From contig PGCN01000018.1 of the NCBI GenBank assembly GCA_002786385.1, positions 434,001-498,000 of the forward strand: DNA of 64,000 bases, written 5' to 3'. Below, one piece after another: positions 4,898-58,772 of the stretch (its first letter is position 1; every line of letters starts with the position of its first letter). Position numbers and translations under genes: made by a program. The notes under the pieces are model-generated. The model saw only the letters and a list, made by a program, of their open reading frames with translations, had not been told where the DNA came from and did not search any database. The DNA is from Flavobacterium sp. FEMGT703F (GTDB taxonomy: Bacteria; Bacteroidota; Bacteroidia; Flavobacteriales; Flavobacteriaceae).

Positions 4898-6432
4898 GAG
4901 AAAGAAAGAACATAGACCGCCTTTTTCAGGAGAAATTCAAGGATTTTGAAGTCAATCCTCCTGAGGTTGTTTGGGATGCTATTGAAACCCATCTGGATAA
5001 AAACAAAACCAGAAAGATTATACCGTTATGGTGGAAACTCGGCGGCATTGCAGCGGTATTCCTTATCGGCTTTTTAATACTACAAAATGGCTCTAATCCA
5101 AACCAAATTCCGTCAAACCAAGTGACTGTTGAAGAAAACAATACCAACAAAAACGAGGCAACAAAATCCGATACCAACATTCCAAACCCTAACACTGTAA
5201 CGGCAAAAGACAAAAACCAACAGCCGGTTGTGGTAAACAACAACGCTCCTAAAAATAGTTCGACAGCAACGGCCAAAGAAGCTGCCTTTGTAAACAATAA
5301 TCGTCCACAAAACGCAACTAAAAAATCACCTGTTCAACATTCGTTCGCAAACAAAACAATAGCGGAAAGAAATGCGACAAAGGCGAACAAACACAAAACG
5401 GATGCGGAAAACAATGCTGGCCATCAGAACGATATCAATGGGTTGACGGAAAACAATAAGACTGCCATAACAGCCAACGAAGATGAAAGCGTAAACTCTA
5501 AAGAGCACACTGCTATTATAGATCGTTCCAAAGAAATTTCGTTAGAATCTTTAAAAGGAAGTCCTAAAGCCATTGCTGAAACTGAGGCAAAAAACAACCC
5601 AAAAGACAGCGCTAAAACCAACGAAACGCCTAAAAATCCTTTAGATGAATTGTTAGCTGCCAAAGAAGAAAACAAGAAAAAACCGGAAGGCAAAACAAGT
5701 AAATGGCAAATCATTTCCAATGTCTCTCCTGTTTTTATGGGGGCTTTAGCTAATGGTTCCGCAATTGATTCTACTTTAGCCGGAAACAGCAAGTCTTTCA
5801 ATACCAATATTGGATTTGGATTGGGCGTAAGTTACGCGGTAAGTCCGAAGTTCACTATCCGAACCGGATTGAATAAAGTGAACATGAACTACAACACCAA
5901 CGATGTGTTTTATTATGCTAGTATGGAAACGCGCGGTTTGAGTGGTTTGAGTCCTTCAGGACCGGGTTACTCCATACAAGTTGAAAATGCTAACGGACCA
6001 AGTCCATCCGCTGTCGCTGGCCCTTCAGAAACCGATTTGTTGAATTTTGAGCAAAACATAGTACACAAAAACAGAGGGTATATCAATCAAGAAATCGGCT
6101 ATTTAGAAATGCCGGTTGAAATGACTTATGCGCTTGTGGCTAAAAAATTCGGCTTAAAAATTATAGGCGGCTTCAGCACCTTGTTTTTACAAGACAATTC
6201 TATTGCTGTGGTATCCGGAAACCGAACTACGGTTTTGGGTGAAGCTAACAATCTGAACAATATTCATTTCAGCACCAACATAGGATTGGGAGTAAAATAT
6301 GATTTACTAAAGTCTTTCGAATTTCATATTGAACCAACATTCAAATATCAAATCAATACATTTAATAATAACGCCGGAAACTTCAGGCCTTACCTGTTTG
6401 GGGTTTACAGTGGCTTTAGTTATAAATTCTAG
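4894..6432 (+). CDS. Candidate anti-sigma / outer-membrane beta-barrel fusion protein
   Basis: The 512-residue protein has three parts. A short cytoplasmic head (residues 1-43, with FEVNPPEVVWDAIE) is followed by one transmembrane helix (about 45-62, WWKLGGIAAVFLIGFLIL). Next comes a long low-complexity Asn/Lys/Thr/Ala-rich linker (about 65-265). The last 240 residues have the alternating aromatic pattern and terminal Phe of an outer-membrane barrel or porin-like domain (ends GVYSGFSYKF). The overlap with the sigma gene suggests the head binds that sigma factor. The barrel may rest in or under the outer membrane, with the linker crossing the periplasm. Anti-sigma function is inferred from position and topology, not from a recognised domain. 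Confidence 0.7.
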   Translation: MRERKNIDRLFQEKFKDFEVNPPEVVWDAIETHLDKNKTRKIIPLWWKLGGIAAVFLIGFLILQNGSNPNQIPSNQVTVEENNTNKNEATKSDTNIPNPNTVTAKDKNQQPVVVNNNAPKNSSTATAKEAAFVNNNRPQNATKKSPVQHSFANKTIAERNATKANKHKTDAENNAGHQNDINGLTENNKTAITANEDESVNSKEHTAIIDRSKEISLESLKGSPKAIAETEAKNNPKDSAKTNETPKNPLDELLAAKEENKKKPEGKTSKWQIISNVSPVFMGALANGSAIDSTLAGNSKSFNTNIGFGLGVSYAVSPKFTIRTGLNKVNMNYNTNDVFYYASMETRGLSGLSPSGPGYSIQVENANGPSPSAVAGPSETDLLNFEQNIVHKNRGYINQEIGYLEMPVEMTYALVAKKFGLKIIGGFSTLFLQDNSIAVVSGNRTTVLGEANNLNNIHFSTNIGLGVKYDLLKSFEFHIEPTFKYQINTFNNNAGNFRPYLFGVYSGFSYKF

Positions 6433-6487
6433 TTTGTTACTTGTTTAAAATTAGTTAAGTGGTGTTATTGCTTTCGAGTAATAACTG

Positions 6488-6516
6488 AAAAGAGTTCCTT
6501 ATATCGGAACTCTTTT
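6488..6516. terminator. Bidirectional terminator between convergent genes
   Basis: An 11-bp stem (6488-6498 with 6506-6516) with a seven-base loop has A and T runs on its two sides. It serves the barrel-fusion gene on the plus strand and the acyltransferase on the minus strand, whose stop codon starts at 6518 and touches the stem. A smaller hairpin lies just upstream near 6463-6484. Confidence 0.85.
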
Positions 6517-7253
6517 TATTTTTGGTCATTTAGTAAATCTCGTAACAGCAACTCCCTAACTTCATTTTTAAGTGTTTTTTTGTACTCCGGATTTTGGTTT
6601 TTAGTCTCAAAAAAGCGATGCACTTTAACCCGCATCAAACCGGGACTTCCGCTAAAAAAGGTATAGGAAAACAATCGTTTGTTATCGAAGAAAGTCATAG
6701 GAACTATAGGAATTTCATGGTCTATGGCCAAGCGAAAAGCGCCGTCTTTAAATTCGTCTAACACCACGCTTTCATCCGGCACGCCACCTTCGGGAAAAAT
6801 GCAAATACTTAAACCTTGGTGTAATCTTTTCTGCGCTCTTTCAAAAACAGCCATACGGCTTTTAGAGCTGCTTCTGTCCACTAATATACATGTACGTTTG
6901 TAGAAAAACCCAAAAAGCGGAATCTTTGAAAGCTCTTTTTTCCCCACAAAAACAAACGGATTTCGGATAACCGAAAGCATCAACATGATGTCGGTCATGG
7001 AAGTATGGTTGGCTACAAACATATAACTCTTCCCTTCTTCGGGTTGTTGTTCAAAGTCGACTTTGGTTGGGAATCCCATCCCAAAAAGGATAAACTTGGC
7101 CCAAATTCGCGCCATGACAAAAAAGTATGGATACCATTTTTCTGAAAGTATGGAAACCAACAGAAACGGGAACATGACAATGATGGGAATCGCCATTAAA
7201 ATGTAAAACCAAATGCGATACAGTATCCAAAAAATAATTTTGATGCCTCTCAT
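6516..7253 (-). CDS. PlsC-family 1-acylglycerol-3-phosphate acyltransferase (second copy)
   Basis: The 245-residue protein has a hydrophobic N-terminal anchor (FWILYRIWFYILMAIPIIVMFPFLL) and the catalytic NHTSMTD motif (H83, D88). It also has the KKELSKIPLFGFF segment and the FPEGGVPD substrate motif. It should acylate lysophosphatidate or a related lysolipid at the inner membrane. I chose the ATG at 7253 because the upstream in-frame extension to 7370 would run through the trpS promoter region and is unlike the family. It is transcribed divergently from trpS. It differs clearly in sequence from the PlsC-like protein at 1834-2568, so the two are not a recent duplication. Confidence 0.85.
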   Translation of the reverse strand: MRGIKIIFWILYRIWFYILMAIPIIVMFPFLLVSILSEKWYPYFFVMARIWAKFILFGMGFPTKVDFEQQPEEGKSYMFVANHTSMTDIMLMLSVIRNPFVFVGKKELSKIPLFGFFYKRTCILVDRSSSKSRMAVFERAQKRLHQGLSICIFPEGGVPDESVVLDEFKDGAFRLAIDHEIPIVPMTFFDNKRLFSYTFFSGSPGLMRVKVHRFFETKNQNPEYKKTLKNEVRELLLRDLLNDQK

Positions 7254-8308: not shown

Positions 8309-9412
8309 CTAAATCGCCTCAAATAATTTTCCGGGCAAAGGTCGAACCACGCCTTTTAATTCCATATTAATGAGCGTTGACGACACTCTGAAAATCGGAC
8401 ACTCGCATTCGAGTGCGATGATATCCAAGAGTTGTTTTCCGTTTTGCAATAAGAAATCGTAGATTTTTTGTTCTTCAGCATCCAACGACACAAAAAGTTG
8501 CTTTTGAATGGTTTTAGGCTTTTCCTCTTCCAATTGCCAGTTCAAACTGTAAATTAAATCGGCTGCGGAAGTAATGAGTTGCGCTCTTTGGGTTTTGATC
8601 AACTCATTGCAACCCTGACTGTATTTGTCGGTTGTTCTTCCGGGTACGGCAAAGACATCTCTGTTGTAGTCGTTGGCCAAATTGGCAGTGATTAATGACC
8701 CACCTTTTTCGGCACTTTCAATCACAATTGTGGCTTCGCTCATGCCGGCTACTATGCGATTTCGTTTGACAAAATTCTCTTTTTCGGGACTGGAACTGCT
8801 CCAAAATTCGGTTAAAAAACCACCGTTTTGCTCCATTTTGGCCACAAACTTTTTATGGCTCTTGGGGTAAATCTGATTTAATCCGTGTGCTAAAACACCA
8901 ACGGTTTGAAGTTGCAATTCCATAGCAGTTTGGTGCGCTACAATATCAACGCCGTAAGCCAATCCGCTTACAATGATAGGATTGTAAAACGACAAATCTT
9001 CCAGCAGTTTTTTGCAAAATTCGGTACCGTAAGCGGTGATTTGTCGGGTGCCAACTATGCTGATAAGTTTCCGATTGCGAAAGTCAAAATTACCGTTGCC
9101 AAACAACAAAACAGGTCCGTCTATACAGTGTTTCAACCGTTCGGGATAAGCTTCGTCTGTAAAATATAAAACCCGAACACCTTCATGTTCTATAAATTGC
9201 ATTTCGGCAGTGGCTTTTTCAAAAATGGATTTGTCTTTTAACTTTCGCACCAAAACATCACCTATACCGTCAACAGTCCTCAGTTGATTGGGCTTGGCTT
9301 CAAAAACAGCAGCAGCTGAACCAAAGGCATTTAGCAACTTTTTGGCCATAATATCGCCTACGCCTTCTACCTGGAGCAGTGCTAAAAGATGAAATAGTTC
9401 GTTTTGATTCAT
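8309..9412 (-). CDS. dprA: DNA-processing protein DprA
   Basis: The 367-residue protein starts with helix-hairpin-helix-like segments (VEGVGDIMAKKLL and VDGIGDVLVRKL). The central Rossmann-type DprA core follows, with SIVGTRQITAYG, IVSGLAYGVDIVAHQTA and AVPGRTTDKYSQGCNELI. A short C-terminal winged helix (about residues 300-367) completes it. DprA loads RecA onto incoming single-stranded DNA during natural transformation, and the protein is also widespread in organisms not known to be competent. Its stop lies three bases from the trpS stop. A -7-like element (9429-9436) and the divergent SPOR-gene promoter share the upstream region. Confidence 0.95.
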   Translation of the reverse strand: MNQNELFHLLALLQVEGVGDIMAKKLLNAFGSAAAVFEAKPNQLRTVDGIGDVLVRKLKDKSIFEKATAEMQFIEHEGVRVLYFTDEAYPERLKHCIDGPVLLFGNGNFDFRNRKLISIVGTRQITAYGTEFCKKLLEDLSFYNPIIVSGLAYGVDIVAHQTAMELQLQTVGVLAHGLNQIYPKSHKKFVAKMEQNGGFLTEFWSSSSPEKENFVKRNRIVAGMSEATIVIESAEKGGSLITANLANDYNRDVFAVPGRTTDKYSQGCNELIKTQRAQLITSAADLIYSLNWQLEEEKPKTIQKQLFVSLDAEEQKIYDFLLQNGKQLLDIIALECECPIFRVSSTLINMELKGVVRPLPGKLFEAI

Positions 9413-9480
9413 ATCAATAAAATACTACAAAAATAGGAGTTTTTTTATTCGGATTGTTAATAAAAATTGTGAATAATTTT

Positions 9481-42309: not shown

Positions 42310-43293
42310 CTAATGGATATATCCTTTAAAATCTTTATGTTCTTCTTTTAAAAGCTCTTCACTTGAAAGCGATTTAAAATAGTCATACGTTAATTTCATC
42401 CCTTCTTCACGAGACACTTTGGCTTCCCATCCCAAAATTTCTTTGGCTTTGGTAGTATCGGGTTGGCGCTGTAACGGATCGTTTATCGGTAGCGGATGGT
42501 AAACCACTTTTTGATTGGTTCCGGTAAGTTTGATGATTTCGTCAGCAAAATCTTTGATGGTGATTTCATCCGGGTTACCAATGTTAACCGGATAAACATA
42601 ATCCGAGTGCAACAAACGGAAAATCCCTTCCACCTGATCGGTTACATAACAGAAAGAGCGTGTTTGACTTCCGTCACCAAAAATAGTTAAGTCTTCCCCT
42701 CTCAAAGCCTGACCAATGAAAGCCGGAATTACACGGCCGTCGTTGAGACGCATTCTTGGACCGTAGGTATTGAAAATCCTGACAATTCTTGTTTCTACGC
42801 CATGAAAAGTATGGTAAGCCATGGTGATTGATTCTTGGAAGCGTTTGGCCTCATCGTAAACACCTCTTGGTCCAATGGTATTTACATTGCCGTAATATTC
42901 TTCGGTTTGCGGATGCACCAATGGATCTCCATACACTTCAGAGGTTGAAGCAATCAGAATTCTGGCTTTTTTAACTCGCGCCAAACCCAATAAATTATGC
43001 GTTCCTAAAGAACCTACTTTAAGGGTTTGTATCGGAATTTTTAAATAGTCTATCGGACTGGCCGGTGAGGCAAAATGGAGTATATAATCTATTTTTCCAG
43101 GAACATGCACAAACTTGGTTACATCGTGGTGGTAAAATTCGAAGTTTTTTTCTTTGAATAGATGCTCGATGTTTTTTAAATCTCCCGTGATTAAATTATC
43201 CATTCCAATCACAAAGTATCCTTCGGCAATGAATCGGTCACAAAGATGAGAACCTAAAAATCCTGCGGCTCCGGTAATTAATATTCTTTTCAT
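42310..43293 (-). CDS. UDP-glucuronate decarboxylase-like SDR (UDP-xylose synthase type)
   Basis: The 327-residue short-chain dehydrogenase has the NAD motif [10 protein letters not shown] and the catalytic Tyr/Lys in [10 protein letters not shown]. It also has the UXS-type segments [34 protein letters not shown] and TRSFCYVTD. These fit conversion of UDP-glucuronate to UDP-xylose more than other epimerases. It overlaps the O-antigen ligase gene by four bases (start over stop) and precedes the sugar phosphotransferase, forming a three-gene minus-strand unit. Confidence 0.88.
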
Positions 43294-44624
43294 AATTTTT
43301 GTTCTGTTTTGGGACCTTGAAATGGAATGCCCGAATTAAAAAGGCAGTACATTATGGTGAAATATACCACCCCTCTTTGTCTCCATAAAAATGATTCCGT
43401 CAAAAATAAACTTATCATTAGAAATGCAAAAGCAAAATGGGTAAAATCTTTTGACTGAATGGCTTTTTTTAATGTTAGCGTAATGATAATAATCAAAAGC
43501 AAGAAACCAAACACGCCCAGCTCGGCAAAATTCTGAATATACTGATTGTGGAAGTTCTTTTTTTGGTAACCTTCTAAAGAGGCATTACCTTGAAAAACGT
43601 TGTAAATTAATCCCTTGGCTTCTATTTTAGGATAAGAAGCATTGAGTCCATAACCTTTCCAAAAAATAGCATCTTCATCCAACATTTCCAGAAATAATCT
43701 GAATTGGTAAACCCGAAATGCTGTGCCCGGGAAAAAGTCGTTTTCATTGAACTTGTCTTGCGTCCACGCTTGTTTAATGCTGACATTGAAAAAAGTACTG
43801 TTCTTTTCTTTAGAAATAACGTCGTTAACCGTGCTGTTGGTCATAATGGTTTCGTATTCCCGATGCAAATGGTCTTTAATTTTCCCTATGAATCCTAAGG
43901 ACAGTAAAAGCACTGTCATCACTATTAAATTTTTCATTCGCATTTGCTTAGAAACTTTGGCGAAGGCTAAAAAATAAATGATGATTAATCCGAAAAAGGC
44001 AATAATGATGTTAACCGAAGAGAGCAAAAGCACCATTAGTAGTAATATGGCCATGGCTACATAGTCAAAGGTTTTTTGGGTACTCTTGGCTAAAAACCAA
44101 AAAAAAGAGACCGCCATATATACCGAAACGTGGATGGCATTGACATCTTTGGTCACTAATTCGTGGTAAAAAAAGACATCCGAGTTTCCCGTTAGAAAAT
44201 ACCTTAACGTTGCTTTTGACAGATAAAACAAGGCGAAAATTAAAATACAATGACTGTAGTATTTTAGAACAGTAGCTTTTTTCTCTTGTGAAATACCGCC
44301 AAAAAGCCAAAAAAACAGCGGAATTAAAAGCAAAGAAAGCTCTTTTGACAAGGCCGGTAAGGTTAAACTCCGATCAATACTCCACCAAAAAGACAACGCC
44401 ATTAAAACGTACAGCAGAATGGGAAACAACAAGTATGACTGAAAACGAATTTGTGCTGTTTTGAGACGGATAAGCGTATACAATCCCAACACCGCAATAG
44501 CAATGGAATTGACAATATAGGGAAAAGGAATACTGAGTAAAACCAAAAGGACTAATAAGGCCTGCTTTTCTCCTTCAAAATCCTGTTTTATAGTTTCAGA
44601 AAAGTTTTTTAAAACGTTGTTCAT
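43290..44624 (-). CDS. O-antigen ligase/polymerase family membrane protein
   Basis: The 444-residue protein has about 11 hydrophobic helices and a large periplasmic loop near residues 280-360 with [17 protein letters not shown] and the [21 protein letters not shown] motif. The H-N-x-Y-I-x-x-xx-E-x-G pattern is the usual Wzy/WaaL loop. It either polymerises O-units or ligates them to the lipid A core; the sequence does not decide. It is first in a unit with the UDP-glucuronate decarboxylase and the initiating transferase. Confidence 0.85.
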
Positions 44625-48814: not shown

Positions 48815-49534
48815 ATGATTCAAAAACTCTCTATCATCATACCGGCCTATAACGAAGGAAAAACCATTCATTTGATATTGGATAAATTACAAAAGGTAAA
48901 CCTTCCTAATGGAATTGAAAAAGAAGTAATTATTGTAAATGATTGTTCCAAAGACAACACAGAGGAAGCTATTTACAATTACATGCAGCAAAACCCCGCT
49001 TTGAACATACAATATTTCAAACAAGCAGTTAATATGGGTAAAGGTGCTGCGCTTCATACCGGAATTCAAAAAGCAACCGGTGAATACTTGGTTATTCAAG
49101 ATGCTGATTTAGAATACGACCCGGAAGAATATAACCTACTGTTAAAGCCTATTTTATCCGGCTTTGCCGATGTAGTATTTGGCTCTCGTTTTATGGGAGG
49201 AAATCCTCATAGGGTATCTTTCTTTTGGCATACCATTGGTAATAAATTTTTGACCTTTCTTTCCAATATGTTTACCAATCTGAACTTAACAGATATGGAA
49301 ACCTGTTACAAAATGTTCAATACCAAAGTTGTACAAAGTTTGGTTCTTAAAGAAAAAAGGTTTGGTTTTGAGCCTGAAGTCACAGCAAAAATTTCGAGAA
49401 TACCCAAAATACGCATCTATGAAGTGGGTATATCCTACTACGGAAGAACCTATGAAGAGGGTAAAAAAATTGGTTGGAAAGATGGATTTCGGGCCATTTA
49501 CTGCATTTTAAAATATGGATTATTTAAGTCGTAA
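48815..49534 (+). CDS. Glycosyltransferase family 2 (dolichyl-phosphate mannosyltransferase-like)
   Basis: The 239-residue GT-A enzyme shows [20 protein letters not shown], the [15 protein letters not shown] segment, the metal-binding DAD in [13 protein letters not shown], and the [11 protein letters not shown] and [10 protein letters not shown] motifs of DPM1/GtrB-like enzymes. It probably makes a polyprenyl-phosphate sugar as donor for the large membrane GT-C-like proteins encoded downstream (50445-52361, 52821-54506). That partnership is an inference. It overlaps the next ATG by one base. Confidence 0.92.
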
Positions 49535-50253
49535 TGGAAATAAAAGAAATTGACGTAGAAGGATTAACCACCTTATCGGTAATAGAAAAAGCGGATAAAT
49601 TCAATGGTTGGATGTACCACACTATTGCGCCGTTTTGCAAAGGAAGAATTTTGGAAATCGGTAGTGGCATTGGTAATATCTCGCAGTTTTTTTTGGCTAA
49701 TAATCAGGAAATTGTCTTAAGCGATTTAAGAGATAATTATATTGATATTTTAGGAAAAAAGTTTCCAACTTCAGAGGCTATCAAAATTGATCTGGTGCAT
49801 CCGGAATTTGACCTTGTTTACAAAGATTACCTAGGCGCTTTTGATACTGTCTTTGCACTCAATGTGGTTGAACACATTAAGGATGATGTTCAAGCTATTG
49901 CCAATTGTAAAAAGCTATTAACAAACAATGGGAACTTGATTATTCTGGTGCCTGCATTTCAAGCCCTGTACAACAATTTTGATGTAGAATTAGAGCATTT
50001 CAGAAGGTATACAGCCAAAACATTAAAACCCCTTTTTGTTAAGAATGATTTGAAAATCCTCAAAACTTTTTCATTCAATTTCATTGGGATTTTCGGATGG
50101 TATTTTTCGGGAAATATCCTGAAGAAAAAAACCATCCCTGAAGGGCAAATGGGTCTGTTTAATCGTTTAGTGCCTTTATTCAAATTAGCTGATGTCTTGA
50201 CTTTCAAAAAAATTGGCTTGTCGGTTATTTGTATTGCTACTAGAGAAAAATGA
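49534..50253 (+). CDS. Class I SAM-dependent methyltransferase
   Basis: The 239-residue protein has SAM motif I as ILEIGSGIGNISQFF, an acidic residue in VLSDLRDNYI, motif II-like FDTVFALNVVEHIKDD and motif III GNLIILVPA. It resembles methyltransferases that often accompany DPM1-like enzymes in surface-sugar loci. The last 90 codons are duplicated at 52516-52800. This copy is the intact one: the seven-A run near its end is in frame, whereas the duplicate has six. Substrate unknown. Confidence 0.88.
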   Translation: MEIKEIDVEGLTTLSVIEKADKFNGWMYHTIAPFCKGRILEIGSGIGNISQFFLANNQEIVLSDLRDNYIDILGKKFPTSEAIKIDLVHPEFDLVYKDYLGAFDTVFALNVVEHIKDDVQAIANCKKLLTNNGNLIILVPAFQALYNNFDVELEHFRRYTAKTLKPLFVKNDLKILKTFSFNFIGIFGWYFSGNILKKKTIPEGQMGLFNRLVPLFKLADVLTFKKIGLSVICIATREK

Positions 50254-50381
50254 GTATTGTCTTTTAATGTAACTCGATGTATGTTAGCTTAATTTGTTTT
50301 CTTCTTACCGCTTTAATTTTTGTAGTTTACGGGAAGAGTTTTGTTCTTAAATTTGGCCAACATAACATACTCAATTACAAT
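49971..50381 (+). repeat. Direct repeat copy 1 (methyltransferase end plus start of the next gene)
   Basis: The 411-base segment matches 52516-52925 at about 90% by hand alignment (roughly 39 substitutions and one single-base gap). It covers the last 280 bases of the methyltransferase gene, the 23-base spacer and the first 105 bases of a second gene. The similarity starts and stops abruptly at both ends. Confidence 0.9.
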
Positions 50382-50426
50382 ATTTTGAGTTTTTTTGTTG
50401 TGTACTGTCTCTACAAATTAGGGTAA
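50277..50426 (+). pseudogene. Truncated 5' copy of the 52821-54506 membrane-protein gene
   Basis: The 49-codon reading frame begins MYVSLICFLLTALIFVVYGKSFVLKFGQH, almost the same as the start of the 561-residue protein at 52821. After residue 35 the sequence departs (NYNILSFFVVYCLYKLG) and stops. Homology at the DNA level ends at about 50381. It is a leftover of the duplication that brought in the next gene, not a working enzyme. It may still be translated as a one-helix peptide. Confidence 0.8.
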
Positions 50427-50444
50427 TTCCAAAATAATTATAAC

Positions 50445-52361
50445 ATGCTAGTATACTTAGGTTACATTTTACTGCTAATGGTTTTTTTGGGGAAAAATAA
50501 TTTTTCCAGAATTACAGAGACGGTTATAAAAACAACTCTTCTTTTTTCCGGTATTCTATTTTTAGTAACCGAATTATTGAGTGGTTTTCATTCCTTAAAC
50601 CTATTTAGTTTGGCGATTTTTTGGAGCACTTTCAATGTGATCCTAATTGCTTTACTACTTCGAAATCAAGGCAAAGTAACACTCCGGTTGATGGTGCAAA
50701 AAATTAAATTCTACTATCAAAACCTTTTACTAAAAGAAAAGCTATTGATTGGTGTCTTGTTGATTCTATTGTGTCTTTTGCTTGCTCAAGGCTTGTTGTA
50801 TCCGCCAAACAACTGGGATTCGCTTACTTACCACATGTCGAGAATTATGTATTGGATTGGCAACGAATCCGTTGATTATTTTCCTACACATATATTACGC
50901 CATCTCTACCAACCGCCTTTCGCCGAATACTTTATTCTAAATATCAACTTATTAAACGGAAACGATTTTTTATCGAATAGTGTTGAACTTTTCTTTTTAA
51001 TACAGTGTCTTGTAGTGGTGTATGCCCTACTAAGTATGTTCCAAACAACTCGTTTATTAAAGCTGTTAGCGTTATTCTTGGTGATTACTATTCCGGCGGT
51101 AGAATTACAATCCACCACAACCAAAAACGACATAGTTTGTGCTTTTTTTGTTTTATCGTCGTTGTTTTACAGTTTAAAAATATTCAAAAATAATTCGTTA
51201 AACAATACTGTTTTTTTTGGACTTAGTATCGGTTTGGGATTTATTACCAAAGGAACCGCGTACGTCTTTATGGCGCCTATTTTAGTCTTATACGGTTTTC
51301 ACATATTATCCGTAAGCCTGAAAGACAAAAGTGTCAAACCCATAGGATTGGCCACTTTAGCAATGGTCCTTGCGCTAAGTTTGAACGTTAAACATTACAG
51401 CCGAAATTATGCTGTAAACAAGTCGTTTTTGAATATTGACGATGCAGAAGTTAAAGCTTACGCTAATGAAACTATGAACGGGAAATTGCTCTTGTCTAAT
51501 TTGATCAAAAACTCCGGCTTGCATTTGGGCTATCCTATAGAGAAAAAGTGTGATTCAATAATTCGAAATGCACACAAAGCAATAGGCGTTTCGATTGATG
51601 ATAAGAGGTTAAACTATTTAGGAGTTCCATACCAAAGTGCCAGAGCAGCCGTTACCCATGAAGATTATGTGACTAATACTGTACATTTCATTCTTTGGGC
51701 TTTAGCTTTTTCCTTTTTAGTGTTTCACTTTTTGTTTTCAAAAACAAGAAATAAGACTGAAATGATAATCGTTATCGTTTTGGTTGCTCAAATTTTACTA
51801 TTTACGGGCTATTTAAAATGGCAACCTTGGCATACCCGACTTCATATTCCGATTTTCATACTATCAATTATTCCCATAATTCTAGCTTGTCAAAAAGCTA
51901 AGTGGTTTAAAGGAATCGTTGGGTTTAGCACTCCGTTACTTCTTTATAGTTTCATGTTTTACTTTGTGTATAATAATTTGAGACCAATACAAAACAATCC
52001 TGTTTACACTAAAAATTTAAGGATTGACGATAATCGCTTCAAAAAATACTTTGCCAACCAACCGCAGCTCTATACGGAATACAAAGTCGTCTTAGAGGAA
52101 TTGTACGATGCAAATCCAAAAACAGTTGGATTAAAAATGATGGACTGGGAATATCCTTTATTTAATGCTTATTATTATGATCAATTGCAACTCGTAGCCA
52201 TTGATGTTAATAATAACACCGGAATCCTTAAGCAAGAAAATCAGAGCGTCGACTTAATAATATCTACTTCAAATAGTCCGGAGATAATGTATAATGGTAT
52301 AAAATATTCCAACCAAAACAGCAATCATTTGTATATTTGGCTTTACAAAAAGGAGCCATGA
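50445..52361 (+). CDS. Large GT-C-like membrane protein of unknown specificity
   Basis: The 638-residue protein has about 12 membrane helices and, after the third, the loop NNWDSLTYHMSRIMYWIGNESVDYFPTHILRHLYQPP. The early Asp in a periplasmic loop followed by a helix-rich body is the layout of GT-C enzymes (PMT/ArnT-like) that use polyprenyl-phosphate sugars. The last 130 residues form a soluble periplasmic tail. I do not recognise a named family. The gene lies exactly between the two 410-base repeats, so it was probably brought in with them. Its stop overlaps the next ATG by four bases. Confidence 0.72.
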   Translation: MLVYLGYILLLMVFLGKNNFSRITETVIKTTLLFSGILFLVTELLSGFHSLNLFSLAIFWSTFNVILIALLLRNQGKVTLRLMVQKIKFYYQNLLLKEKLLIGVLLILLCLLLAQGLLYPPNNWDSLTYHMSRIMYWIGNESVDYFPTHILRHLYQPPFAEYFILNINLLNGNDFLSNSVELFFLIQCLVVVYALLSMFQTTRLLKLLALFLVITIPAVELQSTTTKNDIVCAFFVLSSLFYSLKIFKNNSLNNTVFFGLSIGLGFITKGTAYVFMAPILVLYGFHILSVSLKDKSVKPIGLATLAMVLALSLNVKHYSRNYAVNKSFLNIDDAEVKAYANETMNGKLLLSNLIKNSGLHLGYPIEKKCDSIIRNAHKAIGVSIDDKRLNYLGVPYQSARAAVTHEDYVTNTVHFILWALAFSFLVFHFLFSKTRNKTEMIIVIVLVAQILLFTGYLKWQPWHTRLHIPIFILSIIPIILACQKAKWFKGIVGFSTPLLLYSFMFYFVYNNLRPIQNNPVYTKNLRIDDNRFKKYFANQPQLYTEYKVVLEELYDANPKTVGLKMMDWEYPLFNAYYYDQLQLVAIDVNNNTGILKQENQSVDLIISTSNSPEIMYNGIKYSNQNSNHLYIWLYKKEP

Positions 52362-52517
52362 GAATTTCAATAAAAAATTATTTGTTCTACTCGTCAGTAT
52401 TTGCCATATTTACTGAAGCCTTCTTTTTTAATTTAATTATTGATTGGAAATTACTCTACCTAATCATACTGGTCAATTATTTTTTATTGTTCAGAATCAA
52501 AAAAATAGCACTAAACA
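52358..52517 (+). repeat. Partial copy of the polymerase gene start (matches 54541-54700)
   Basis: These 160 bases align without gaps to 54541-54700 with about 16 mismatches. This copy begins with ATG where the intact gene has TTG. The alignment supports the TTG as the true start of the intact polymerase gene. Confidence 0.88.
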
Positions 52518-52816
52518 ACATTTTTGATACAGAATTAGAGGCTTTCAGAAGATACTCAGCCAAAGCATTGAATCCCCTTTTTGTTGAGAATGATTTGAAA
52601 ATCCTTAAACCTTTTTCATTCAATTTCATTGGAATTTTCGGGTGGTATTTCTCGGGAAACATCTTGAAGAAAAAAAACATACCTGAAGGACAAATGGGCC
52701 TGTTTAATCGTTTAGTGCCTCTGTTCAAATTAACTGATGTTTTGACTTTCAAAAAATTGGCTTGTCGGTTATTTGTATTGCTACTAAAGAAAAATGAGTA
52801 TTGTCTTTTAATGTAA
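52358..52816 (+). pseudogene. Chimeric ORF: polymerase N-terminus joined to methyltransferase C-terminus
   Basis: The 152-codon frame has two parts. Residues 1-53 (MRISIKNYLFYSSVFAIFT...) copy the start of the polymerase at 54541 at about 90% DNA identity over 160 bases. Residues 54-end copy the last third of the methyltransferase at 49534. The join is in frame at an AACAA-type overlap near 52514-52518. A missing A near 52774 shifts the methyltransferase frame, replacing the true C-terminus with LACRLFVLLLKKNEYCLLM. It lacks the SAM-binding part and most membrane helices, so it is most likely a dead remnant of the rearrangement. Confidence 0.85.
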
Positions 52817-52925
52817 CACTATGTATGTTAGCTTAATTTGTTTTCTTTTTACCACTTTAATTTTTGTAGTTTACGGGAAGAGTTTTGTCCTCAAATTTGG
52901 CCAACATGATATTTCCAATTACAAT
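52516..52925 (+). repeat. Direct repeat copy 2 (methyltransferase end plus start of the 561-residue gene)
   Basis: The 410-base partner of 49971-50381, one base shorter owing to a lost A in a homopolymer. Here the second gene continues intact beyond the repeat, while the methyltransferase part is cut off at its 5' side. The spacing of the two copies is 2,545 bases. Confidence 0.9.
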
Positions 52926-54506
52926 GGCTTTGACTTTTTCTTTATTGGCCTTTGTCTAACCGGAACGTTACTCAATACTTGGTCTTTATTTTTACCGGTA
53001 GACCTGTTTTCTCTGATATTCTTAAGCCTCGGAGCGGCTTTTTTAGTGTATTTCAACAAAGCTGATTTTATTCCATTTTTCTCCTCTTTGAGAAAACAAA
53101 TATTAGACAATAAAATATTCCTTTTCCTTTCATTTATTGCTATTCTAATCACCTTATTGTACGGGTTAGTTACTCCAAGGAATTACGATTCTTATCTGTA
53201 CCACATTAATGCTATCCAATGGAATGAAATGTATGGAACCGTTCCCGGATTAGCTAATTTTCACGATCGGTTTGGGTTAAATTCCTCGGTTTTTGTTCTT
53301 AGCGCAGCGTTCTCCTATAATTTTCTTTACAATCAGTACATTTTCACCATTTCTTCACTCTGTTACTTGGTTTTGTTCATTTGGCTTTTAAAGCAAATCG
53401 TTTTCAAAAAAGGGATAATTGGTTTCTTTTCCATTTTATTCATTTACTTCTTTACTGCTCAATACGCTAATGACATTTCCTCGCCGGGCACCGACTTATT
53501 ACCAAACATTATTGTAGGTTATGTATTGCTTTCCATATTGTTTGACGGCGAAATTTTAACAAAGAAAACCCACTTGTTTATCATTTTGTCCCTTTTTTGT
53601 ATTACTCTTAAACTGTCTTCATTCCCCATAATTTTAATTGGATTGTGGGCTGTTTATTTACGAAATAAAAAGTTTTTTAAAGCTTTGTTCCAATTTTCAG
53701 GGTTTGGTTGTCTCTTGATTTTGCCTTGGATGACTAAAAATGTCATGCTCACGGGATACATCATTTACCCTATGGCAGAAGTTGATTTGTTCAATTTCGA
53801 TTGGGAAGTTTCGAAAAACAGTGTATTAGACATCAAAAGATGGATTACTTCTTGGGCTAGGATTCCCATGAAAAACCACGATGAAGTTTTGGCCATGCCT
53901 TTTAAAGAATGGTTTTCCGTGTGGTGGAATGCCTCTTTAAACATCAATAAGATTTTTTACTTACTGGCTGCAGCTGCTCCTTTAAGTTATGCATCTTACT
54001 ATTTGCTTAACAAAAAAGTTGAAAAAAGTATTCTGACAACTATTTTGGTCGCCTACTTAGGCCTAACCTTTTGGTTTGTCACCGCACCGGATGTACGGTT
54101 TTCGTTTGCTTTTGTGTTGTTCTTAGCATTACTACCATTATTATTCTTTAAATCTTTAGTAGATAAAGTAGCCGAAAAAATCAACCTTTTATTAATTATT
54201 TCGACTGTATATTGCTTATTTTTGATGGGTAAGAATGGCTATAAGCTCTTTTGTGAAGACTATTTTTCAGCTGGAAATTTTTCTGAATATGCCTATTTGC
54301 CTTTAGATGCTTCCGAGATTAAAGACAAAAGAAATATAAAATTTAATTCGGTTGTCTTATTAACAAAAGACGGAAGAAAAATAGAGCTGTTCGAGCCTAA
54401 TCCGAATCACGCCCAATGTTTTGATAAATTCCCTTGTTCATGGTATATTGATCAAAGTTTAAAATTGAGAGGTGAAGATTTGAAGGACGGGTTTTGTACT
54501 GAATAA
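52821..54506 (+). CDS. Large multi-spanning membrane protein, LIC_10190-like, likely GT-C type
   Basis: The 561-residue protein has about 12 membrane helices. The loop TPRNYDSYLYHINAIQWNEMYGTVPGLANFHDRFGLNSS after the third or fourth helix carries the early Asp of GT-C enzymes. It resembles the family I know as LIC_10190 membrane proteins, which sit in surface-sugar loci of Bacteroidota and Leptospira; their reaction is not established. A short Cys-containing periplasmic tail follows the last helix. It is the intact version of the stub at 50277-50426. The polymerase gene follows after 34 bases. Confidence 0.75.
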   Translation: MYVSLICFLFTTLIFVVYGKSFVLKFGQHDISNYNGFDFFFIGLCLTGTLLNTWSLFLPVDLFSLIFLSLGAAFLVYFNKADFIPFFSSLRKQILDNKIFLFLSFIAILITLLYGLVTPRNYDSYLYHINAIQWNEMYGTVPGLANFHDRFGLNSSVFVLSAAFSYNFLYNQYIFTISSLCYLVLFIWLLKQIVFKKGIIGFFSILFIYFFTAQYANDISSPGTDLLPNIIVGYVLLSILFDGEILTKKTHLFIILSLFCITLKLSSFPIILIGLWAVYLRNKKFFKALFQFSGFGCLLILPWMTKNVMLTGYIIYPMAEVDLFNFDWEVSKNSVLDIKRWITSWARIPMKNHDEVLAMPFKEWFSVWWNASLNINKIFYLLAAAAPLSYASYYLLNKKVEKSILTTILVAYLGLTFWFVTAPDVRFSFAFVLFLALLPLLFFKSLVDKVAEKINLLLIISTVYCLFLMGKNGYKLFCEDYFSAGNFSEYAYLPLDASEIKDKRNIKFNSVVLLTKDGRKIELFEPNPNHAQCFDKFPCSWYIDQSLKLRGEDLKDGFCTE

Positions 54507-54540
54507 TTCCGGTTATTTTATAAATTAATCTATTTTTTCG

Positions 54541-55716
54541 TTGAAAATAAATATAAAAAATTATTTACTCTACTCGTCAGTATTTGCCATATTTACTGAA
54601 GCCTTCTTTTTTAATTTTATTATTGATTGGAAATTACTCTATCTAATCATTGTGGTCAATTACTTTTTATTGTTCCGAATCAAAAAAATAGCCCTGAACA
54701 AGTACTTTGCGCTGCTTTTGGTCTTCTTTTTTATTCATGGTCTGTTGGCTTATTCCGTTATCCGGATTCCATATAATTATATGCTTTCCCAAATTATAGG
54801 AATTGGTATAGTGGGAACGTATTATTACAATTTTATTTCGCTGTACAAAACCATCGATATCATCAAGGTATATGCTAAAATGTGTACCTATGTTGCCCTT
54901 ATTGGGTATGTGTTTTTTTACTTTGGGATTAACTATGTTGACGGTCGATTGAATAGTATTTTTAAAGAACCGGCACACTATGTTATCGTAGTGATTCCGG
55001 CCTGTTACTATTACCTTAAAACAAAAAAGTACCTCAATTTCATTATAATTTTCGGGACATTGCTCCTGTCCAATTCTTCCTTGGGATACATTGGCTGCGG
55101 ATTGTTGTTTTTAGTGCCCAATCTCACGTTAAAAAGAATCGGCTATTTCGTTGCTTTAATGCCTTTTATCGGACTTGCATTTTACTTTGCTTACAACGAG
55201 TTACCTTTCTTTAAAATGCGTGTTGACGACACCTATAATTCGCTTAATGTGGTCAATACCGGAAAGTTTGAAGAGCACACCAACCTAAGTTCCTATGTGT
55301 TAATCAGTAATTTGTACATTGCTAAAAGAAATATCACTGAACATCCATTGGGCAGCGGCATCGGAAGCCACCATTATATGCATACCCAACGTTACTTAAA
55401 AGAAGTGCGACCGCCCGAATACATCCGCGACCAGCAAAAACAAGATGACAATTCTTTTGATGCCAATTCCTTATTCACACGCATTTTTTCTGAATTCGGA
55501 TTTATTGGATTTTTCTTGGTGCTCTATACTATGTTTCTGGCTTCCAAATGCTACTCGCATGAGGAATTACTCTTTTCACAGGGTGTTTTTATTTACTTTT
55601 TGTTAAAACTGTTCAGAGATGGTCATTATTTTCCTCCTGAATTCTTCTTCTTTATTTGGCTTTTTTATTTTTGCCGAAAGGAATTCGCCCTAACCTCTGA
55701 TGCCCATGAAAAATGA
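54541..55716 (+). CDS. O-antigen polymerase (Wzy)-like membrane protein
   Basis: The 391-residue protein has about ten membrane helices and a large periplasmic loop near residues 245-310 (TEHPLGSGIGSHHYMH, NSFDANSLFTRIFSEFGFIGFFLVL). The G-x-G-x-x-x-H and the loop before the last helices fit Wzy polymerases. It probably joins repeat units in the periplasm. The start is TTG 54541; the 160-base partial copy at 52358 begins with ATG at the matching place, which supports it. The GT4 gene overlaps its end by 17 bases. Confidence 0.8.
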   Translation: MKINIKNYLLYSSVFAIFTEAFFFNFIIDWKLLYLIIVVNYFLLFRIKKIALNKYFALLLVFFFIHGLLAYSVIRIPYNYMLSQIIGIGIVGTYYYNFISLYKTIDIIKVYAKMCTYVALIGYVFFYFGINYVDGRLNSIFKEPAHYVIVVIPACYYYLKTKKYLNFIIIFGTLLLSNSSLGYIGCGLLFLVPNLTLKRIGYFVALMPFIGLAFYFAYNELPFFKMRVDDTYNSLNVVNTGKFEEHTNLSSYVLISNLYIAKRNITEHPLGSGIGSHHYMHTQRYLKEVRPPEYIRDQQKQDDNSFDANSLFTRIFSEFGFIGFFLVLYTMFLASKCYSHEELLFSQGVFIYFLLKLFRDGHYFPPEFFFFIWLFYFCRKEFALTSDAHEK

Positions 55717-57399: not shown

Positions 57400-57515
57400 T
57401 GACTGTAAAAATACCTGCTCACTCTAGGGACTTAATGTCCTAAAATACAATCCTTTTTTTAGTTAGATTGTAAGTTACCAATGTTTGTAAAATAGTGTTG
57501 CTTATATACCCTTGT

Positions 57516-58772
57516 ATGAAAAAAATATCGTTTCAGTTATTTCCTTTTTTGCTTGCTTTACTCTTTGTTTTCCCCATCCTAAAGGAAAACTGGTCGAGTA
57601 TAATTGTCATCCTGATTTGCTTAAATGCTATTGTATATAAAATTGCCGCTAAAGATTTTACTTGGCCCAAAAGAACAACGCTCTTGCTTACGATTCCGTT
57701 TTGGTTGGTTACTTTTCGATCTTTATTCAGCAACCATTGGAGTGAAAGCGCCACTCACATTCAGCATGCGCTGTTTTTTTTGATACTGCCGCTTTTTTTC
57801 TTCTTTATCCCAAAAGAGCATTTTACGAAACAAAAGTTTGACTTATACATCAAGGTTTTAAAGTATACTTGTTTGGCTATAGGAATCATTTATGTGGTGA
57901 GTTTCTTTATGAATTACTCCATCAGCGAGTTTTTTATAGTGTTCCAAAACGTTTCGAGCTTCAGAAACTATGTGTATTTCGACTTTACGCTGTTTAAAAT
58001 TCATCCTACTTATTACACTACTTTGTTGGTTTTTTGTACAGCGCATTCCTTTGATTTGGTTTTGCAACAAAAAAAATACAGTCAATTTTTGTTTGTAGTA
58101 GCGTTTATGCTGATTTCGATTATGCTTTTAACCCGACTCAACATTGTCTTGCTCATATTAACTTTAACATTAATGGTGTTTTTCAGAAGCAATCTCAAAC
58201 TCAAACAAATGTTGCTGTTGTCGGGCGGTATTTTAGGTTTAACCGTTGTTATATCCCTGCTCACACCGGGCATTAAACACCGATTTGTAGAACTGTATCA
58301 CAGTTACGATGTAAAACCCCAAAATGTGGCCTATGATTCAACCAACATTCGAAGAGCTATTTTTGACTGCTCGGTGGCCATTTCTAAGGAAAATTTTTGG
58401 TTTGGCGTGGGCTTCGAGAATCTACAAGACGAATTAAACACTTGTTATAGAGATAATTACGATTCCAGCTTTTATGATGGTCACAACTACATGACACACA
58501 ATTATTTCTTTTACATCTTGGTGTCAGGTGGCATTTTTTGCTTGGCTGTATTTTTGTTTTATCTTTTTACCATTTTGCAAATCGCTTGGAAATCTAACAA
58601 CTTCTTATTCAAAGTTTTCCTAATCAATGTAATGGTGATTTGGTTTATAGAAGATTATTTGTACAGACATTATGGGATATTGTACTTCAATTTGCTACTG
58701 ATTTGTTTCATCAGATATACTGAAAACCAAACCCTTGTAACAGAAGCTGAGTCAAAAAAAGTTACCGCATAA
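57516..58772 (+). CDS. O-antigen ligase family membrane protein
   Basis: The 418-residue protein has about 11 membrane helices and a periplasmic loop near residues 290-335 with FWFGVGFENLQDELNTCY and YDGHNYMTHNYFFYILVSGGIFCLA. The H-N-x-F-x-x-x-x-x-x-G-G pattern fits WaaL-type ligases or Wzy polymerases. I use the ATG at 57516 (MKKISFQLF); a GTG 21 bases earlier is possible. It lies alone on the plus strand between two minus-strand units and ends three bases from the rfbD stop. Confidence 0.82.
   Translation: MKKISFQLFPFLLALLFVFPILKENWSSIIVILICLNAIVYKIAAKDFTWPKRTTLLLTIPFWLVTFRSLFSNHWSESATHIQHALFFLILPLFFFFIPKEHFTKQKFDLYIKVLKYTCLAIGIIYVVSFFMNYSISEFFIVFQNVSSFRNYVYFDFTLFKIHPTYYTTLLVFCTAHSFDLVLQQKKYSQFLFVVAFMLISIMLLTRLNIVLLILTLTLMVFFRSNLKLKQMLLLSGGILGLTVVISLLTPGIKHRFVELYHSYDVKPQNVAYDSTNIRRAIFDCSVAISKENFWFGVGFENLQDELNTCYRDNYDSSFYDGHNYMTHNYFFYILVSGGIFCLAVFLFYLFTILQIAWKSNNFLFKVFLINVMVIWFIEDYLYRHYGILYFNLLLICFIRYTENQTLVTEAESKKVTA

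What the first reader, a model, noticed from the sequence alone, without database searches (positions are those of the whole stretch)
49971..52925. A roughly 410-bp direct repeat flanks an acquired membrane-glycosyltransferase gene
49971-50381 and 52516-52925 match at about 90% by hand alignment. They cover the end of a methyltransferase gene and the start of a second membrane-protein gene. Between them lie an intact 638-residue GT-C-like gene and a piece of the polymerase gene. Such repeats are the expected product of a single-crossover (Campbell-type) integration of a circular or duplicated segment sharing the methyltransferase/gene-start region. Recombination between the repeats would excise the GT gene cleanly, giving a switch in surface sugar structure. 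The 10% divergence suggests a donor from a related strain rather than a recent in-place duplication.
Basis: partly seen in the sequence, partly recalled or inferred. Interest (0 to 1): 0.78.

Follow-up and report, generated by a model that had tools for sequence, protein, structure and literature searches.

The report
Hybrid sugar-coat locus with flipped genes
Two versions of the same surface-sugar gene cluster appear to have been spliced head to tail in this Flavobacterium, leaving broken copies of the neighbouring genes and reversing the usual order of two probable sugar-transferase genes; it is an instructive scar of ordinary gene exchange, not a proven switch.

Summary
The repeat is real: 49970-50394 and 52515-52939 are 89.7% identical. 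A second repeat explains it: the wzy start at 52370-52518 matches 54553-54701 at 93.3%. The two meet at 52515-52518, inside a 12-bp stretch where intact wzy and methyltransferase (MT) agree at 11 of 12 bases; about 1 in 9,000 random breakpoint pairs falls in such a stretch. Gene order is MT - ORF561 relic - GT638 - wzy'/MT' in-frame fusion - ORF561 - wzy.

In Flavobacterium relatives this locus loses genes modularly. In 4 of 4 places that hold both membrane genes the order is ORF561, GT638, wzy, the opposite of here; two that lack GT638 clearly keep its 3' end just before wzy, and four more weakly.

Codon changes fit two alleles that diverged while functional, then fused, after which the relics decayed: pooled relic dN/dS 0.3-0.4; neutrality is 5.8 lnL worse, full constraint 8.2 worse (5.5 and 8.3 with four dropped codons restored). 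An unnamed relative (G382) has an independent repeat flanking ORF561 here.

Best reading: two alleles joined at a microhomology, comparable to the Salmonella D2 hybrid cluster. A Campbell circle is possible but unnecessary; a switch is untested.

The parts
48815..49534 (+). GT2-type glycosyltransferase upstream of the composite region
   Evidence: PF00535 E 3.1e-32; found beside MT, ORF561 or GT638 in many of the relatives
49534..50253 (+). intact methyltransferase (MT), 239 aa
   Evidence: PF08242/PF08241; 67-76% identity to 7 orthologues
49970..50394 (+). repeat R1, copy 1: end of MT, spacer, start of ORF561
   Evidence: 89.7% to 52515-52939
50277..50426 (+). relic of ORF561: first ~42 codons recognisable, 49 codons then a stop
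   Evidence: tblastn of ORF561 residues 1-42 at 50277-50402, 78.6%, E 2e-13
50445..52361 (+). GT638: intact 638-aa GT-C-type membrane glycosyltransferase
   Evidence: PF13231 E 7.7e-9; low-confidence model, best PDB hits AftA, OST and Emb proteins at E 0.014 or worse
52358..52816 (+). in-frame chimeric ORF (152 aa): wzy N-terminus (53 codons) fused to MT C-terminus, frameshifted tail; ATG overlaps the GT638 stop and the ORF ends 4 nt before ORF561
   Evidence: no Pfam match
52370..52518 (+). repeat R2, copy 1: start of wzy
   Evidence: 93.3% to 54553-54701
52507..52518 (+). wzy'/MT' junction; intact wzy (54690-54701) and MT (49962-49973) agree at 11 of 12 bases here, the junction itself differing from each at 2-3 bases
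   Evidence: fraction of random breakpoint pairs in such a stretch 1.1e-4
52515..52939 (+). repeat R1, copy 2: truncated MT (1-nt deletion near 52750), spacer, start of intact ORF561
52821..54506 (+). ORF561: intact 561-aa multispanning membrane protein, tentatively GT-C-like
   Evidence: 39-52% identity to relatives at the same place; no Pfam match; 'NYDSYLYH' aligns with 'NWDSLTYH' of GT638
54541..55716 (+). intact wzy (O-antigen polymerase/ligase family); its start holds R2 copy 2 (54553-54701)
   Evidence: PF04932 E 3.3e-8

Best explanation
A composite of two alleles of one modular polysaccharide locus. Allele A was MT - (deleted ORF561) - GT638 - wzy; allele B was MT - ORF561 - wzy. Both descend from an ancestral order GT2-MT-ORF561-GT638-wzy by loss of one gene each. 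A recombination anchored by homology upstream and completed at a 12-bp microhomology between wzy of A (codon ~53) and MT of B (codon ~147) put A's segment in front of B's. The result has one working copy of every gene, GT638 and ORF561 in reversed order, and relics (ORF561 start, wzy start, MT end) where copies were redundant. The wzy'/MT' relic stayed in frame, which may preserve translational coupling along the operon (inferred). Both proteins can now act in one cell, as in four relatives. Shown: both repeats, relics, microhomology, gene orders, codon pattern. Inferred: two-allele source, upstream crossover, route of DNA entry, effect on the sugar.
For: Two repeats abutting at 52515-52518; wzy/MT junction at an 11/12 microhomology, 1.1e-4 of random breakpoint pairs. 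Order ORF561, GT638, wzy in 4 of 4 places with both (L045, L024, L030, L052), among 26 distinct places (36 fetched loci, 10 of them the same contigs twice). Single-gene alleles exist: ORF561 only in 7 of 26 (L044's is frame-broken), GT638 only in 4 of 26, neither in 11 of 26, some of these on truncated contigs. GT638 3'-end scars just upstream of wzy (L038 8e-13, L037 2e-8; weak in L048, L049, L051, L023) and before FkbM in L039 (4e-5). Codon model with equal branch lengths, pooled over three relics: best relic dN/dS 0.3-0.4; 1.0 is 5.8 lnL worse, background 8.2 worse; 5.5 and 8.3 with 39 instead of 35 ORF561 codons. Pooled simulation of in-place duplication: 19 nonsynonymous codons seen, ~30 expected, 0 of 3000 as low (35 codons); 22 against ~33, P about 0.001 (39 codons). 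Three of the 10 MT' amino-acid changes hit residues invariant in all 7 orthologues used (H to A and T to S in LEHFRRYT, A to T in LAD), which the intact copy keeps. Independent parallel in G382 (L024; one contig): GT2 copies 96.4% identical over 719 bp flank ORF561, 27 codon differences, 2 nonsynonymous.
Against: No same-species genome with allele A or B alone was found, so the parents are inferred, and today's intact genes stand in for the parental ones in the microhomology test. The dN/dS test rests on 77+35+52 codons; taken gene by gene it is weak (dN/dS of 1 costs 2.3 lnL for MT, 2.9 for wzy, 1.0 for ORF561; simulation P for ORF561 0.27-0.29). A first fit without equal branch lengths converged poorly, and gave odd single-gene values, though it pooled near 0.3. 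A functional chimera under constraint would also lower dN/dS. The ORF561-wzy gap of copy 2 holds no significant GT638 trace (P 0.86), so allele B's loss of GT638 is not seen directly. The weak scars (E 0.001-0.008) are individually within reach of chance: 23 of 720 shuffled upstream stretches hit at E <= 0.05, one of those printed at 0.001.
Confidence: 0.66

Rival explanations
1. In-place tandem duplication followed by reciprocal gene loss: one lineage with MT-ORF561-GT638-wzy duplicated the segment from MT end to wzy start at the same microhomology, then lost ORF561 from copy 1 and GT638 from copy 2, flipping the gene order (the tandem-duplication/random-loss model).
For: Every gene has exactly one intact copy; ancestral order supported; the microhomology junction would serve equally; needs no donor.
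Against: MT' and wzy' would be truncated, hence neutral, from birth; too few nonsynonymous differences (MT 10 observed vs ~17 expected, P 0.002-0.007; pooled omega 1 is 5.8 lnL worse; pooled simulation). NG86 dS of 0.41 for MT means a long time for unselected fragments to survive. Weakened if the chimera is constrained or if two whole cassettes coexisted before truncation.
Confidence: 0.18
2. Campbell-type integration: a circle carrying MT end, ORF561 start, GT638 and wzy start from a related strain integrated by one crossover within R1.
For: Topologically gives the same structure; R1 flanks the unit; codon pattern also fits two alleles.
Against: Needs a circle first closed at the wzy/MT microhomology, an extra step; GT638 has no match at E <= 1e-5 in 72,556 plasmid or 50,697 phage records; no integrase or transposase family among 20 ORFs scanned, 5 of which matched no family.
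Confidence: 0.08
3. Active switch: recombination between R1 copies (removing GT638) or R2 copies (removing ORF561) is frequent and gives cells with different sugars.
For: Both products would leave MT, one of the two membrane genes and wzy, gene sets that occur in relatives. Exact shared runs reach 36 bp (R1) and 49 bp (R2), long enough for some homologous recombination (general knowledge).
Against: 10% and 7% divergence should suppress it; R1 differences number 1-8 per 50 bp with no clear homogenised block; relic decay indicates the joined form has persisted. No recombinase family seen; the only inverted pair reported in 45-57 kb is a weak one of 29 nt at 72%.
Confidence: 0.05
4. Assembly artefact joining two co-occurring strains.
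Against: The join has a 4-bp exact overlap (12 bp at 11/12), too short for an assembler's k-mer join; relics carry degenerative changes (frameshift, invariant residues lost); reported completeness 100 and contamination 0.06; a parallel case lies in an assembly listed as one contig (G382).
Confidence: 0.03

Closest known systems
Salmonella group D2 O-antigen gene cluster (hybrid of D1 and E clusters; PMC3715488, passages read)
   Same: Two versions of a polysaccharide cluster joined into a composite with a recombination scar at the junction; related clusters carry wzy remnants.
   Different: D2 has an H-repeat element remnant at the junction; here no mobile element was seen and the join is at a 12-bp microhomology, with duplicated relics of flanking genes and a reversed order of two genes.
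Homology-facilitated illegitimate recombination in natural transformation (S. pneumoniae, A. baylyi, P. stutzeri; PMC6382021, passages read)
   Same: Homology on one side and a microhomology join on the other would produce this structure in one event.
   Different: The passages speak of 3- to 10-bp segments; that the process can bring in kilobases with a short microhomology at one end is recalled from the primary papers they cite, not read here. Competence of this organism and the upstream crossover were not tested.
Tandem duplication - random loss (the 6 papers listed concern mitochondrial genomes, to judge by titles and abstract starts)
   Same: Order reversal with one intact copy of each gene and relics of the others.
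   Different: Codon pattern favours two diverged alleles rather than one duplicated copy.
F. psychrophilum serotype locus (PMC5601056, passages read)
   Same: Flavobacterium polysaccharide locus with substituted membrane-protein (polymerase-like) genes exchanged by recombination.
   Different: There single genes replace one another; here two segments are stacked.

Membership tests
Composite (hybrid) O-antigen-type cluster | segments related to different alleles joined at a recognisable junction | tested here: met
   R1 and R2 abut; wzy'/MT' junction at 11/12 microhomology
Composite (hybrid) O-antigen-type cluster | parental alleles exist separately | tested here: inconclusive
   MT-GT638-wzy (L047) and MT-ORF561-wzy (L023, L051) exist in other species, none close enough to be the parent
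Tandem duplication - random loss | gene order derived from the ancestral order by keeping one copy of each duplicated gene | tested here: met
   ORF561-GT638-wzy in 4 of 4 places with both; here reversed with relics
Tandem duplication - random loss | copies identical at birth, truncated copies neutral afterwards | tested here: not met
   relic dN/dS 0.3-0.4, 1.0 is 5.8 lnL worse, pooled simulation P < 0.002; a constrained chimera would mimic this
Campbell-type integration | circular donor or phage/plasmid origin | tested here: inconclusive
   no GT638 match in plasmid or phage collections; a one-off circle cannot be excluded
Repeat-mediated phase switch | excised form present in cells | not testable with these tools
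   no reads or same-species genomes
GT-C glycosyltransferase (GT638) | PMT-type domain | tested here: met
   PF13231 36.4 bits, cut-off 26.1
GT-C glycosyltransferase (GT638) | GT-C fold | tested here: inconclusive
   the ten best Foldseek hits are AftA, Emb, DPY19 and OST-containing entries, but none at E <= 0.001 and the model has pLDDT 61.6; that these are GT-C proteins is recalled
GT-C glycosyltransferase (ORF561) | family match or GT-C fold | tested here: inconclusive
   no Pfam match; model pLDDT 66.5, best PDB hit ALG3 at E 0.2; profile match to GT638 over 69 columns, probability 32%

The most novel reading that the evidence does not exclude
The two unequal repeats make a three-state locus: R1 x R1 recombination deletes GT638, R2 x R2 deletes ORF561, and the joined form keeps both, so one strain can yield three surface sugars that recreate natural alleles; and such stacked alleles (also G382) are a recurrent intermediate by which Flavobacterium reshuffles gene order in its sugar loci.
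Probability: 0.1. Interest if true: 0.65.

Novelty: new variant of a known kind. Interest (0 to 1): 0.42.

Why it matters
Operon gene orders differ between bacteria, yet the intermediate steps are seldom readable. Here the duplicated relics, the breakpoint microhomology and the usual order in relatives can all be read, so one rearrangement of a surface-polysaccharide operon can be reconstructed. It also suggests how cells come to hold two alternative transferase-like genes at once.

Tried and rejected
In-place duplication was my first model; the codon tests moved it to second place. The fit (no clock) had a nan warning and branch lengths or ratios at bounds, so one search is used. Rows and codons dropped before counts: the last 4 of 39 aligned ORF561 codons (3 more nonsynonymous differences; restored, result unchanged), the wzy start codon, and MT codons after the frameshift; orthologues used were MT 7 of 7 found (L022 and L043, close to L039, were not in that call's list), ORF561 7 of 8, wzy 10 of 21. 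I looked for ORF561's 3' end in the spacer 50395-50446 (P 0.03 against the end region, 0.35 against all of ORF561: not claimed) and for GT638 in 54504-54541 (P 0.86). A closer relative was sought in 398 genus genomes drawn from a larger group, 199 relatives and a GTDB contig scan (16 loci): best DNA identity over most of wzy or MT 72%. From one search's 64 matching genomes I fetched 20 stretches of 19 genomes, leaving out G095 and genomes with only short matches; G095 (L100) has ORF561 but no other of the nine query genes within 19 kb and is not among the 26 places. Structure searches gave only weak matches. Literature: searches returned 0 papers; six, mitochondrial by title and abstract start; others (2 papers; 3 papers) no title on this point; led to the transformation paper, 33 to the F. 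psychrophilum paper, 57 to the Salmonella paper. I found no description of this structure in those searches, which cover open-licence papers only.
Full report
Observation. A BLASTN of the window against itself finds two repeat pairs at E <= 1e-5. R2 copy 1 and R1 copy 2 overlap at 52515-52518. The region therefore reads MT (49534-50253), start of ORF561 (relic, 50277-50426), GT638 (50445-52361), wzy' fused to MT', ORF561 (52821-54506), wzy (54541-55716). The locus occurs once in its 2.98-Mb genome, inside contig C24.

The junction. Intact wzy 54690-54701 and intact MT 49962-49973 agree at 11 of 12 bases, and the fusion changes from one to the other at that place; the junction itself differs from each at two or three of the 12, as expected if the parents were not today's copies. 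Of 825,985 twelve-base wzy/MT pairings, 12 reach 11 matches, and 1.1e-4 of random breakpoint pairs lie inside one; counting only an exact overlap of 4 bp or more the figure is 0.026. The fusion is in frame: an ORF of 152 aa from 52358 to 52816 that starts at an ATG overlapping the GT638 stop and ends 4 nt before ORF561. An in-frame fusion has a one-in-three chance, so a role in coupling is only a suggestion. The MT' part has a 1-nt deletion near 52750.

Relatives. Thirty-six loci (L017-L052) cover 26 distinct places, 10 having been fetched twice (equal contig lengths and hits). L022 and L040 are two short contigs of one genome (G256); L027 shows GT2 and MT but no wzy of this family. One conserved but modular order appears: a transporter that I label Wzx-type from its sequence (no Pfam match), FkbM, GT2, MT, ORF561, GT638, wzy, GT4, each often absent. 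ORF561 and GT638 occur together in 4 of 26 places (L045 F. enshiense, L024 = G382, L030, L052) and in 4 of 4 the order is ORF561, GT638, wzy, opposite to the window. ORF561 alone is in 7 of 26 (L022, L023, L036, L039, L043, L044, L051; L044's is broken into frames), GT638 alone in 4 (L034, L046, L047, L050), neither in 11. GT638 is rare: 9 of 396 genus genomes match, including the window's own and two short matches (G145; and G527, 24 residues of the C-terminus), so 7 of 396 have it full length. Some loci that lack GT638 keep its C-terminus directly before wzy: L038 (E 8e-13) and L037 (2e-8) are clear; L048, L049, L051 and L023 (0.001-0.008) are weak; L039 has one between ORF561 and its FkbM gene (4e-5). 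L038 and L049 also have GT2 N-terminal scars and L028 an ORF561 C-terminal scar. Shuffled controls gave 2 of 700 hits at E <= 0.01 and 23 of 720 at E <= 0.05. The ancestral order GT2-MT-ORF561-GT638-wzy with repeated loss is the simplest reading.

Which history. If one copy had been duplicated in place, MT' and wzy' would have been truncated at birth and would evolve neutrally. The copies differ at 24 of 77 MT codons (10 nonsynonymous), 13 of 52 wzy codons (5) and 7 of 35 ORF561 codons (4). Simulation of the in-place model expects about 17, 8.3 and 5.2 nonsynonymous codons; P is 0.002-0.007 for MT, 0.06-0.07 for wzy, 0.27-0.29 for ORF561 over three background values. Pooled, 19 are seen against about 30 expected, 0 of 3000 simulations as low at either of two background values; with the four ORF561 codons that I had dropped, 22 against about 33, P 0.0007-0.0013. 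A codon model with equal branch lengths for relic and intact copy, pooled over the three, peaks at relic dN/dS 0.3-0.4; 1.0 is 5.8 lnL worse and background 8.2 worse, or 5.5 and 8.3 with 39 ORF561 codons. So the copies seem to have diverged under constraint for part of their history and the relics to have decayed for the rest. Three of the 10 MT' amino-acid changes hit residues invariant in the 7 orthologues used, and the intact copy keeps all three. The test is short, single genes are weak, and a chimera that is itself under constraint would mimic the result.

A parallel. In G382 (L024; listed as one contig) GT2 occurs twice, 6107-6825 and 8727-9445, 96.4% over 719 bp, flanking ORF561; 27 codons differ, 2 nonsynonymous. 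It is the only repeat between the transporter gene and wzy in the 36 loci at E <= 1e-6; repeats in L045, L046, L047 and L050 lie downstream of wzy, and one in L027 lies about 5 kb from MT. Repeat-flanked stacking has thus happened at least twice in this locus, if G382 is read the same way; its junction showed no wzy or other relic.

Mechanism and alternatives. Homology-facilitated illegitimate recombination is described for competent bacteria (PMC6382021, passages) and would give the structure in one event; competence here is untested. A Campbell circle would also do, but needs prior circularisation, and GT638 has no match among 72,556 plasmid or 50,697 phage records. Pfam scans of 20 ORFs (18 genes between 39.7 and 60.2 kb and the two relic ORFs; 5 without any match) show no integrase or transposase. 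Recombination R1 x R1 would leave MT-ORF561-wzy; R2 x R2 would leave MT-GT638-wzy. Exact runs reach 36 bp and 49 bp, so rare excision is plausible; persistence of decayed relics argues against frequent excision.

Function. GT638 has a PMT_2 domain, and its low-confidence model has AftA, Emb, DPY19 and OST entries as its ten best structural matches (E 0.014 to 0.19). ORF561 has no Pfam match; its best structural match is ALG3 at E 0.2 and its profile aligns with that of GT638 over 69 columns including a shared D-S-x-x-Y-H motif (E 4.7e-4, probability 32%). That the matched proteins are GT-C enzymes is recalled. I take both to be GT-C-like transferases of lipid-linked sugars; for ORF561 this is tentative.

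Comparison with what is known. Salmonella group D2 is a composite of two O-antigen clusters with a remnant at the junction (PMC3715488, passages), so the general kind is known. F. psychrophilum swaps polymerase-like genes in its serotype locus by recombination (PMC5601056, passages). What is unusual is the microhomology join without a visible mobile element, the three relics, and the resulting reversal of gene order. I therefore call it a new variant of a known kind, of moderate interest.

Noticed in passing
L024:6107-9445 (G382): Independent 719-bp, 96.4% direct repeat of almost a whole GT2 gene flanking ORF561 in the same locus of another species.
   Followed up: partly
L038:9450-9651; L037:9900-9992; L049:9850-9960; L028:7132-7206; G527:C1:691992-692063: Short scars of GT2, GT638 and ORF561 ends, the first four just upstream of wzy, in genomes without the intact genes there; the surroundings of the G527 one were not examined.
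   Followed up: partly
L044:8259-9936: ORF561 homologue broken into three overlapping frames in a MAG titled as a complete chromosome (CP096136.1); real decay or sequencing indels not distinguished.
   Followed up: no
L039/L043:9213-9947: FkbM gene sits between ORF561 and wzy instead of upstream of GT2, another order change in this locus, with a GT638 C-terminal scar before it in L039.
   Followed up: no
window 43290-44624 (-), 54541-55716, 57495-58772: Three Wzy_C (PF04932) proteins within about 15.5 kb; which is the polymerase, the ligase or a second system's enzyme is unclear.
   Followed up: no
G000:C1:58505-59761: A distant ORF561-like paralogue (26%) elsewhere in the same genome; of 120 of 398 genus genomes that match ORF561, only 9 (the window's own included) have a full-length match at 40% identity or more.
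   Followed up: no
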